DNA of 64,000 nucleotides from Caldilineaceae bacterium SB0661_bin_34 (GTDB lineage: Bacteria > Chloroflexota > Anaerolineae > Caldilineales > Caldilineaceae). Shown piece after piece: positions 44,849-47,879 of the stretch; position 1 is the stretch's first letter; the number at the start of each line of letters is the position of its first letter. The DNA lies in assembly GCA_009841145.1 (NCBI GenBank), contig VXMJ01000024.1:1-64000 (forward strand). The letters run 5' to 3'. The notes beneath the pieces were generated by a model that saw nothing but the letters and a program-made list of their open reading frames with translations, did no database searches and was not told where the DNA came from. A program made the translations under genes and the position numbers.

Positions 44849-45166
44849 TTATCGAACGGTGTGCACTTCAAGCTGGACGCCCTCGTGCTGCTGAATGCAA
44901 CTGATGACCTCGAACAGATTGCGAGAGTGGGGATTGCCGGCTGGTCCGAACATACGCATCAGGCTCTTGGGGGACTTGCTCGTGAGAATGCCAAGCTCTT
45001 CGAACCCCATGGTGGCATTGATGTAGTCGCGCAGCACGATCTTGCCCGCGTCGACATCCCCGGCCAGCAGACACTCGATGCCTTCCTTTAGCAACCCCTC
45101 TCTGAAAGCCGGATCGCGCTGGGCGCGGGCCTGTACGGTCTTCTTGAAATCACGGGTTAGCGGCAT
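44849..45166 (-). CDS. HigA-like antitoxin (addiction-module antidote protein family)
   Basis: A 105-residue DNA-binding antitoxin with a lambda-repressor-like fold. It has the strongly conserved pattern of the family: ECLLAGDVDAGKIVLRDYIN, GFEELGILTSKSPKSLMRMFGPAGNPHSRNLFEVI. It starts only 3 bp past the TGA that would end the full-length toxin. It should bind the toxin and repress the operon. The gene looks intact, while its toxin carries a premature stop. Confidence 0.85.
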   Translation of the reverse strand: MPLTRDFKKTVQARAQRDPAFREGLLKEGIECLLAGDVDAGKIVLRDYINATMGFEELGILTSKSPKSLMRMFGPAGNPHSRNLFEVISCIQQHEGVQLEVHTVR

Positions 45167-45169
45167 GTT

Positions 45170-45499
45170 TCACATCTCTTGTTGCTTGCGTCGTCTGTAC
45201 TCCTGCCAAAGCTCACGGGCCTACTCAATGTCTCTCTGCTGGCGCGCCTTGGTCCCTCCTCCGAGCAGGACTATCAAGGTATTCCCATCCCTGCCGAAAT
45301 ATACCCGGTAGCCCGGGCCAGCATGTATGCGGCGCTCCAACACTCCTCTGCCAACGCCTTTGGTGTTTGAAAGGTTCCCTGCCTCCATGCGGGCGAGGGC
45401 CGTCCGTACCCTGTTCGCCGCCCTGACATCGAGACCATCGCACCAACGACCGAAGGGACTGCGACCATGGCCATCGATGTATTCTCTGATCTCAATCAT
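45170..45499 (-). pseudogene. HigB/Gp49-like toxin gene with in-frame amber codon
   Basis: The reading frame gives a RelE/Gp49-type toxin (YIDGHGRSPFGRWCDGLDVR, then GPGYRVYFGRDG and LLGGGTKARQQRDIE). It then meets TAG at codon 93, at 45221-45223. Past the stop the same frame continues ARELWQEYRRRKQQEM and TGA at 45170-45172, 3 bp before the antitoxin. That tail matches the C-terminal helix normal in the family, so a single nonsense change, or readthrough, is the simplest reading. TAG ends other genes here, so it is not recoded. The 92-residue product may still fold. Confidence 0.75.
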
Positions 45500-45507
45500 A
45501 CAGATAT

Positions 45508-45525
45508 GGTAACACTGCAGTTACC
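45508..45525. promoter_or_regulatory. Candidate operator upstream of the toxin-antitoxin genes
   Basis: The inverted repeat GGTAAC-ACTGCA-GTTACC lies 9-26 bp before the toxin ATG (45499) and extends to eight bases per arm with one mismatch. Autorepressed toxin-antitoxin operons carry such sites at the promoter. No convincing -35/-10 pair is visible, so only the palindrome is claimed. Confidence 0.45.
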
Positions 45526-45684: not shown

Positions 45685-45939
45685 ATGATCGCCAACGTTA
45701 GGGCCCGATACAGCAACGGTGTGCTTGTTCCCCTGGAGCCCCTCGATTTGGAAGAGGGGGAGGAAGTAGCGGTGTTAATCAAGCACGCGCCACTACTCGG
45801 CAACAGTCCAGAGTCCATGTTGGACATGTTCGAGAGGCTGAGGATGTCCGTTCCCCCGGATACATGGGACAACCTTCCCGCCGACTTGGCCAGGAATAAG
45901 AAGCACTACCTCTATGGATTTCCGAAAGATGCCGATTGA
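45685..45939 (+). CDS. Orphan antitoxin, DUF104/AF2212-like
   Basis: An 84-residue protein of the AF2212-like antitoxin family. ANVRARYSNGVLVPLEPLDLEEGEEVAVLI is the diagnostic strand-turn region. Such proteins usually precede a PIN-domain toxin gene. Here nothing resembling one follows in the next 460 bp, so it seems orphaned. AGGAG lies seven bases before the ATG. Its partner may have been lost, or it may regulate another module nearby. Confidence 0.8.
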   Translation: MIANVRARYSNGVLVPLEPLDLEEGEEVAVLIKHAPLLGNSPESMLDMFERLRMSVPPDTWDNLPADLARNKKHYLYGFPKDAD

Positions 45940-46402: not shown

Positions 46403-47566
46403 TTAGTCGTCCAGTTCGTTCGGCAGCAGCGAACGCCATTCGCTCGGCGCCCGCAACGCAGCCTTAATGCATTGGAGATGGTCCGACGGCGGGCCATGTT
46501 CTCGCCAAGCTGTTTCGATAGTGTCCAGGTCTGCCGGTGTCAACTCATCCCCCAGGAATGTGCGCATCGTCGCGACGGCATGGTCCGTTCGTGCGTATTC
46601 CAAGTCGGTCGCGCGGTCGCGCCAGCGGCCCTGTCCCTCGTCCCACCATTGAAAACGCGGCATTCCCGGAACCGATGCCAACAGACCGCCCGCCAACGGC
46701 ACGTCCGGTTGCCACAGGCGAATATGCGTTGCGCACACGCGGCTGAAGATCCCCCGCGCATCCTCCCGTGATTGTTCTTCCCGGTACGTCCCGTCCGGCT
46801 GCAGCCGGAACAGGAGGAGTTTTGCAGGGGAGCCGGGTTCGTCCGCATCGGGATCGGGCGGGTTTCCGGGATCGCACGCCAGGTACTCAGCAATGCCGAG
46901 TACTGCGTACAACTCCAGCTTGTCCTCGAGATCCCGGTGTTCGGAGGTCGGCGACACAATTTCGACCACCAGTTCCGGTACGGGATGGCCCTGGTCCAGC
47001 CGAATGGTACGACCCTCATTGCTCCGTTCCCGGCCCGCCGGCAATTCCAGGACCCGCGGCAATACCATTAGATCCGGCTTCACCTGGCTCTTGCCTTCTT
47101 CCTTACCGGTAAGCAAGCCCAGTATTTCACCGATCCGCGCAGGGAAGTGCAGTTCCGCCTCGTGCTCCACGCGGTTGCCAAGCATGTCGATGAGCGCATC
47201 GAGCATGACCATGAGGAAGGGCATGTGCCTGCGATGTTCCGGACTCACAAAATCGTCCTCGTCGTATTCGCGGAGATGGACTCCCTCGCCACCGTAGTCG
47301 GGATCAGTGGTCCATTCATCCTCGTATTCATGGGCGATGTCGTACGTGTACCCGGATTCGTAGTGAGCCAGCCGTTCGAGACCAGCGCGCCACGCCGCCG
47401 GATGGTCCCGGCGCCACGCCGTTCGCCGGGCCCGGGCCGTGCGCGCCGTAGCCGCGTCGGTATCGCCGCGCCAAGGCGGTACGCGCCAGTCCCAAACCTC
47501 CGGCGTACGCTCTTCCGCGCACCCGTTGGGTACCGCTCGCGTTGTTTCCCGTACGGGTGTTGCCAT
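46403..47566 (-). CDS. Uma2-family (DUF820) restriction-endonuclease-fold protein
   Basis: A 387-residue protein with a PD-(D/E)xK-like Uma2 domain in the middle. KPDLMVLPRVLELPAG supplies the Asp, and PVPELVVEIVSPTSEHRDLEDKLELYAVLGI supplies the ExV and the downstream Lys. N-terminal about 85 residues are basic and acidic, with a WDWRVPPWRGD motif, and are unknown. The C-terminal 130 residues are also unrecognised. The ATG at 47566 is preceded by GGGGGA. Uma2 proteins are common in multicellular and Chloroflexota genomes; the role is unproven. Confidence 0.78.
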   Translation of the reverse strand: MATPVRETTRAVPNGCAEERTPEVWDWRVPPWRGDTDAATARTARARRTAWRRDHPAAWRAGLERLAHYESGYTYDIAHEYEDEWTTDPDYGGEGVHLREYDEDDFVSPEHRRHMPFLMVMLDALIDMLGNRVEHEAELHFPARIGEILGLLTGKEEGKSQVKPDLMVLPRVLELPAGRERSNEGRTIRLDQGHPVPELVVEIVSPTSEHRDLEDKLELYAVLGIAEYLACDPGNPPDPDADEPGSPAKLLLFRLQPDGTYREEQSREDARGIFSRVCATHIRLWQPDVPLAGGLLASVPGMPRFQWWDEGQGRWRDRATDLEYARTDHAVATMRTFLGDELTPADLDTIETAWREHGPPSDHLQCIKAALRAPSEWRSLLPNELDD

Positions 47567-47879
47567 CGCTTCCCCCTGACTGTGCCAAGGACCGATTCTA
47601 CCCTCGACCAGTTGCCCTCCAGTCCTGAACAATCATGCTCCGTTTCAACGAGTCCGTGAGCAGTCAGACGCGGTTCCCTGCGGATGGCTGCGATGCTCCA
47701 ATGGTGTGAATTCCAGTACAAAGGCGAGTTTCCGGCTGCCCACACACCGGTCTTCCCCAGACCCCATCACCCAAATTGGAATACGACTAACCTTGCTGGG
47801 GTATCCCAGCATTGTGAACGGCAAGGTTCAGCCGGCCGATTCCCCGATGAACCGCACCTTTGACTGTCACACCCCTTCT
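47567..47879. other. Spacer without recognised features
   Basis: 313 bp upstream of the Uma2 start and beyond the end of the amidohydrolase gene, both on the minus strand. No reading frame, hairpin or repeat stands out. Confidence 0.45.

What the first reader, a model, noticed from the sequence alone, without database searches (positions are those of the whole stretch)
45170..45499. Amber codon disables or shortens a HigB-like toxin
The frame reads a complete toxin tail (ARELWQEYRRRKQQEM) after TAG and stops 3 bp before an intact antitoxin gene. Loss of the toxin's C-terminus with the antitoxin kept is a snapshot of a module being tamed, or a readthrough switch.
Basis: seen in the sequence. 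Interest (0 to 1): 0.6.

Follow-up and report, generated by a model that had tools for sequence, protein, structure and literature searches.

The report
Dead HigB-like toxin beside kept antitoxin
In this sponge-associated bacterium a stop codon has cut the tail off the toxin half of a toxin-antitoxin gene pair while the protective half is kept, and close relatives have broken the same toxin in other, independent ways, so this looks like genuine disarming of a selfish module rather than a switch or a sequencing error.

Summary
On the minus strand a TIGR02683 (HigB/RelE-like) toxin frame starts at 45499, meets TAG at 45221-45223, and continues for 16 family-typical codons to a TGA 3 nt before a 105-codon antitoxin. 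It is gene decay, not a switch or, very probably, an assembly error. All four genomes of the genus carry the locus in synteny, each toxin with a different lesion, while about 3,850 flanking codons show none (Fisher p = 1e-6). RF1 is present and none of 47 tRNAs has a CTA anticodon. Toxin dN/dS between congeners is 0.09-0.22, so the losses are recent and independent. An antitoxin-first search of Chloroflexota found 17 of 28 full-length antitoxins beside a broken or missing toxin; no intact close toxin lacked its antitoxin. In two species sharing one toxin-less junction the antitoxin is still under purifying selection (dN/dS 0.10, p = 2e-6). Best reading: recurrent disarming of a HigBA-type module with the antitoxin kept, perhaps as protection against incoming homologous modules (inferred). 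TA decay and orphan antitoxins are known; this is a clear comparative series, not a new kind of system.

The parts
45221..45499 (-). Truncated toxin ORF, 92 codons plus TAG; TIGR02683 RelE/ParE-family (HigB-like) toxin
   Evidence: 91.0 bits, cut-off 62.85; fold of an intact relative:
45221..45223 (-). In-frame amber codon (codon 93) where intact relatives have sense codons
45170..45220 (-). Remnant of the toxin's C-terminal helix (16 codons ARELWQEYRRRKQQEM) and the ancestral TGA
44849..45166 (-). Intact 105-codon antitoxin, predicted all-helical HTH-type protein, distantly related to dnstrm_HI1420
45508..45525 (.). Palindrome GGTAAC-N6-GTTACC upstream of the toxin start; probable autoregulatory operator; only exact copy in the genome
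   Evidence: operator function is inferred

Best explanation
A chromosomal HigBA-type toxin-antitoxin module in a sponge-associated Caldilineaceae genome has recently lost its toxin through a nonsense mutation. Stopping at codon 93 removes about two thirds of the conserved last helix, so the 92-residue product is most likely non-toxic (inferred). The antitoxin and the operator-like palindrome remain intact (shown). The same toxin has been inactivated independently many times in this genus and in other Chloroflexota, mostly with the antitoxin left whole (shown by comparison), and in one pair of species that lack both toxin and operator at the locus the antitoxin is still under purifying selection (shown). 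The likely reason for keeping it is protection: it can neutralise homologous toxins arriving on mobile elements, the anti-addiction model (inferred, less certain than the decay itself).
For: Toxin family and tail. Four congeners, four different sets of lesions, conserved synteny. Flanks free of frameshifts and stops. Toxin dN/dS 0.085-0.22 between congeners (recent loss). RF1 present, no CTA tRNA. Antitoxin-first census, 17 broken or missing against 11 intact or open. At least 13 label changes on the antitoxin tree, 7 forced by well-supported branches. L170/L172 share a toxin-less junction in synteny with antitoxin dN/dS 0.10, p = 2e-6. Homologous toxins on plasmids and viral contigs. No other family toxin in G000.
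Against: No activity data: the 92-residue form could keep some toxicity. Substitution counts are small. G374 has a second copy with an intact toxin (L185) that could maintain selection there, and G280 has a more distant family toxin. In L053 the antitoxin is damaged too, so retention is not universal. Plasmid homologues are mostly below 60% identity, so cross-neutralisation is uncertain.
Confidence: 0.8

Rival explanations
1. Passive decay only: the toxin died by drift and the antitoxin is simply the part not yet lost; it has no present function.
For: In the genus the losses are recent, so an intact antitoxin needs no selection; L053 has already lost half of the antitoxin; degraded antitoxin copies exist (L115, L116).
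Against: L170/L172 antitoxin dN/dS 0.10, p = 2e-6, after a shared toxin loss; 17 of 28 full-length antitoxins stand without a working toxin frame.
Confidence: 0.35
2. The antitoxin is kept as a transcription regulator of other genes.
For: Predicted HTH-type helical protein; operator palindrome conserved at broken loci.
Against: The exact palindrome occurs only at the locus itself in G000, G001 and G003, and one-mismatch sites are no more frequent than the control in nine of ten genomes; in L170/L172 the operator is gone but the antitoxin is still constrained.
Confidence: 0.15
3. Programmed or suppressed readthrough: TAG is a conditional switch that yields 92- and 109-residue forms.
For: The frame after TAG is intact and matches the family tail.
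Against: RF1 present; none of 47 tRNAs has a CTA anticodon; congeners have frameshifts at other places and none shares this amber. An intact tail is expected for any recent nonsense mutation.
Confidence: 0.02
4. Assembly or sequencing error at 45221-45223.
For: Metagenome-type assembly in 102 contigs; reads not available.
Against: About 3,850 flanking codons without a frameshift or stop against six lesions in 436 toxin codons (p = 1e-6); independent stops in a single-contig chromosome (L017) and an isolate (L044).
Confidence: 0.05
5. The 92-residue protein is a selected, non-toxic co-repressor or decoy that still binds the antitoxin.
For: Core invariant residues are retained up to codon 92; C-terminal truncations recur in L044, L042 and L176.
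Against: Congeners break the frame far upstream and leave no such product.
Confidence: 0.05

Closest known systems
HigBA-type modules, toxin family TIGR02683 (upstrm_HI1419) with antidote dnstrm_HI1420 (TIGR02684/PF21716)
   Same: Toxin gene first, antitoxin 3 nt downstream, HigB/RelE fold, HTH-type antitoxin, palindromic operator-like site.
   Different: Toxin truncated by a stop; the window antitoxin itself does not reach the antidote models and only 6 of 38 relatives show weak hits.
Decay of chromosomal TA systems such as ccdO157 in E. coli (PMC2654758, PMC7167474)
   Same: Chromosomal TA module losing function by nonsense mutations and other lesions.
   Different: Here the losses are seen as separate events in congeneric species of Chloroflexota, and the antitoxin is shown constrained after loss in one pair.
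Orphan antitoxins in Klebsiella, E. coli and marine MAGs (PMC7192599, PMC10790755, PMC12654330)
   Same: Antitoxins without a functional toxin partner; dnstrm_HI1420 types prominent among marine orphans.
   Different: Here the toxin remains are still visible and the kind of lesion is identified locus by locus.
Anti-addiction model, ccdEch of Erwinia chrysanthemi (Saavedra De Bast 2008, cited in PMC2654758)
   Same: A chromosomal antitoxin that would protect against homologous toxins on mobile elements.
   Different: Protection is shown experimentally there and only inferred here.

Membership tests
TIGR02683 RelE/ParE-family toxin (HigB-like) | Profile score above the curated cut-off (62.85 bits) | tested here: met
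   91.0 bits truncated, 100.2 bits with TAG as X
TIGR02683 RelE/ParE-family toxin (HigB-like) | HigB/RelE fold | tested here: met
   Model of the intact relative L006 (83-84% identical to the window toxin): Z 15.5 to 6af4, 13.7 to 7awk; the truncated form was not modelled
TIGR02683 RelE/ParE-family toxin (HigB-like) | Complete C-terminal helix | tested here: not met
   Stop at codon 93; helix spans 84-108 in the model; A94, W98, Y101, K105 lost. The gene is a broken member of the family
TIGR02683 RelE/ParE-family toxin (HigB-like) | Ribosome-dependent mRNA cleavage, toxicity | not testable with these tools
   Needs expression and cleavage assays
dnstrm_HI1420 antidote (TIGR02684/PF21716) | Profile match of the window antitoxin | tested here: not met
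   No hit for the window protein at E up to 1; 6 of 38 relatives hit weakly, best 1.3e-4 and 0.0023. Works like this antidote by position and partner
Orphan antitoxin of a decayed type II TA module | Intact antitoxin frame with the cognate toxin frame broken, no other family toxin in the genome | tested here: met
Orphan antitoxin of a decayed type II TA module | Orthologous loci with an intact toxin exist | tested here: met
   Intact homologous modules in the same family, e.g. L099, L100, L101, L105; no intact orthologue is known within the genus
Anti-addiction module | Antitoxin neutralises the toxin of an incoming mobile element | not testable with these tools
   Needs a plasmid-loss (post-segregational killing) assay; homologous toxins do occur on plasmids and viral contigs
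Stop-codon readthrough or amber reassignment | Suppressor tRNA with CTA anticodon, or loss of RF1 | tested here: not met
   RF1 at 513.9 bits; 47 tRNA genes, none CTA

The most novel reading that the evidence does not exclude
Sponge-associated Chloroflexota keep toxin-less antitoxins under selection as immunity against addiction modules circulating among symbionts, so repeated toxin death with the antitoxin retained is an adaptive conversion of a selfish module into a defence gene rather than passive decay.
Probability: 0.3. Interest if true: 0.6.

Novelty: new member of a known kind. Interest (0 to 1): 0.38.

Why it matters
What becomes of chromosomal toxin-antitoxin modules, and why antitoxins outlive toxins, is a long-standing question. 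This locus gives a clean natural series: orthologous loci in one genus with separate recent toxin lesions, another genus with a shared older toxin loss and a still-constrained antitoxin, and intact versions in sister lineages. It allows a direct comparative test of passive decay against retained immunity, in dense sponge communities where such modules may move between symbionts.

Tried and rejected
Readthrough or stop reassignment: rejected by RF1, the tRNA set and non-amber lesions in congeners. L166/L168 as proof of selection after toxin loss: they share an insertion of about 125 bp in the toxin, but identity falls from 98-99% upstream to 91-96% in the toxin tail and antitoxin and 68% downstream, so a likely recombination breakpoint makes the timing unsafe. 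A regulon for the antitoxin: no further exact operator site in G000, G001 or G003, and one-mismatch sites mostly fewer than the control. PDB sequence search with the single toxin found nothing; the profile gave only a weak HigB1 hit. The antitoxin's fold gave no strong structural match. No record of the phage collection holds the antitoxin. A PIN toxin after the neighbouring AF2212-like gene: none found.

Full report
What is there. The finding lies on the minus strand. A toxin frame begins at 45499 (ATG), runs 92 codons and stops at TAG 45223-45221. The same frame continues with ARELWQEYRRRKQQEM to TGA 45172-45170, and the 105-codon antitoxin starts at 45166, after a gap of three bases. The toxin belongs to NCBIfam TIGR02683 (RelE/ParE family) at 91.0 bits; with the stop read as X it scores 100.2 bits and reaches the last profile position. 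The tail is therefore the family's own C-terminus and not a chance open frame. In 35 intact homologues from several phyla the lost part contains A94 (35/35), W98 (33/35), Y101 (35/35) and K105 (33/35).

What the parts are. A model of an intact relative (L006, mean pLDDT 92) has the HigB/RelE fold. The closest solved structures are S. pneumoniae HigB (Z 15.5, rmsd 1.8 over 105 residues) and M. tuberculosis HigB1 (Z 13.7), with RelE at about 10. The last helix spans residues 84-108, so the amber codon removes about two thirds of it. The antitoxin is predicted all-helical; its structural matches are weak (Z up to 6.1, HTH proteins such as HipB, HicB3 and HigA) and a link to the dnstrm_HI1420 antidote family is seen only in some relatives. 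A palindrome GGTAAC-N6-GTTACC lies at 45508-45525, just upstream of the toxin start; it or a near match is present in most relatives examined, and this is the only exact copy in the genome. I read it as the autoregulatory operator (inference).

Not an artefact, not a switch. The genome is G000, 4.34 Mb; its relatives are Caldilineaceae (Chloroflexota), many from sponges judging by isolate names (the sponge source is my reading of the names). All three other genomes of the genus (L035/G001, L053/G002, L061/G003) hold the locus with conserved flanks, and each toxin is broken differently: a 1-bp deletion; a 1-bp insertion plus an amber codon elsewhere; two deletions. None shares the window's amber. 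The aligned flanking genes (DinB-like, AF2212-like, Uma2-like, amidohydrolase, antitoxin) contain no frameshift or stop in about 3,850 codons, against six lesions in 436 toxin codons (Fisher p = 1e-6); the codons are not all independent, being orthologous, and the replaced 3' half of the L053 antitoxin is outside this count. A single-contig chromosome (L017) and an isolate genome (L044, Methylobacterium sp. Leaf123) also carry in-frame stops in this toxin. Release factor 1 is present and none of the 47 tRNA genes has a CTA anticodon. A readthrough switch is therefore very unlikely.

Timing. Pairwise dN/dS between congeners is 0.085-0.22 for the toxin and 0.12-0.22 for full-length antitoxin pairs. 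The toxin was thus under constraint for most of the genus's history, and the losses look recent and separate. Substitution numbers are small (13 to about 45 per toxin pair).

A wider pattern. To avoid a bias towards intact toxins I searched with the antitoxin, in 46 genomes of the family and 400 of the phylum. Of 28 full-length or nearly full-length antitoxins whose upstream region could be read, 17 have a broken or missing toxin (L095-L098, L102, L103, L106, L111, L112, L166-L170, L172, L173, L176) and 11 an intact or fully open one (L099-L101, L104, L105, L110, L171, L175, L177, L178, L185). No intact close toxin was found without its antitoxin. On the antitoxin tree the broken state needs at least 13 changes, 7 of them forced by well-supported branches, so losses are many. 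That the toxin goes first is expected from TA logic, since losing the antitoxin first should be harmful (established knowledge).

Is the antitoxin still selected after toxin loss? The best case is L170/L172. Both have the antitoxin directly behind a tRNA gene with the same toxin-less junction and synteny on both sides, yet antitoxin dN/dS is 0.10 (16 synonymous, 6 non-synonymous changes, p = 2e-6). The operator is missing there too, so autoregulation of a local operon cannot explain retention. A second pair, L166/L168, shares an insertion in the toxin, but a likely recombination breakpoint makes it unsafe and I do not rely on it. G374 (L172) also carries a second copy with an intact toxin (L185), which could itself maintain selection there; G280 (L170) has only a more distant TIGR02683 toxin.

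Mechanism. Shown: toxin frame broken by a stop; antitoxin and palindrome intact; no other family toxin in G000; repeated independent toxin loss; purifying selection on a locally toxin-less antitoxin in one pair. Inferred: the 92-residue product is inactive; the antitoxin is kept because it neutralises homologous toxins on incoming elements. Homologous toxins are common on plasmids (651 records, 263 of them typed conjugative, nearly all below 60% identity) and occur in viral contigs, which makes this plausible, but no cross-neutralisation is shown. A regulatory reuse is less likely because no extra operator sites stand out.

Compared with what is known. TA decay by nonsense mutation and deletion is described for E. 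coli systems such as ccdO157 (PMC2654758, PMC7167474). Orphan antitoxins are abundant in Klebsiella, E. coli and marine MAGs, where dnstrm_HI1420 types are prominent (PMC7192599, PMC10790755, PMC12654330). Anti-addiction is an established model. This case is a new, unusually well resolved example in Chloroflexota, not a new kind of system.

Limits. Most genomes are metagenome assemblies with one representative per species; no reads, expression or activity data were available; substitution counts are small; the antitoxin-first census covers Chloroflexota only, and the 400 genomes were drawn evenly from a larger group.

Noticed in passing
window 45685-45939 (+): 84-codon AF2212-like gene (PF01954, 41.7 bits), intact in all three congeners, with no PIN/VapC toxin detectable behind it: a second toxin-less antitoxin-type gene, divergent from the HigBA locus.
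   Followed up: partly
L053 from about 3509: The antitoxin's 3' half is replaced by unrelated sequence, so this congener has lost both genes.
   Followed up: partly
L166 and L168, toxin after codon 69: Shared insertion of about 125 bp with the inverted repeat CTTCGACAGGCTCAG...CTGAGCCTGTCGAAG, like a REP/MITE element.
   Followed up: partly
L167, upstream of the antitoxin: In-frame internal deletion of the toxin leaves operator, first 8 codons and the C-terminal part: a 58-codon remnant.
   Followed up: no
L170 and L172: Antitoxin sits directly behind a tRNA gene, with a VapC-like gene further upstream (naming by eye); toxin and operator absent.
   Followed up: partly
L044 3259-3262, L042, L176: Other toxins lose only the C-terminal tail: amber at codon 88 in the isolate Methylobacterium sp. 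Leaf123 (L044), frameshifts near codons 91-94 in L042 and L176.
   Followed up: partly
G000:C42:16741-16816 (L163 142-217): An odd tRNA-like gene (47.4 bits) whose anticodon ARAGORN could not assign; loop TTCGCAA, not CTA.
   Followed up: partly
window 46403-47632 (-): 409-codon gene with a Uma2-family region (PF05685, 51.6 bits), conserved in L035 and L061.
   Followed up: no
G040:C39 22573-25687 (L106, L112): Two antitoxin copies about 2.8 kb apart in one genome, both with heavily eroded toxins.
   Followed up: no
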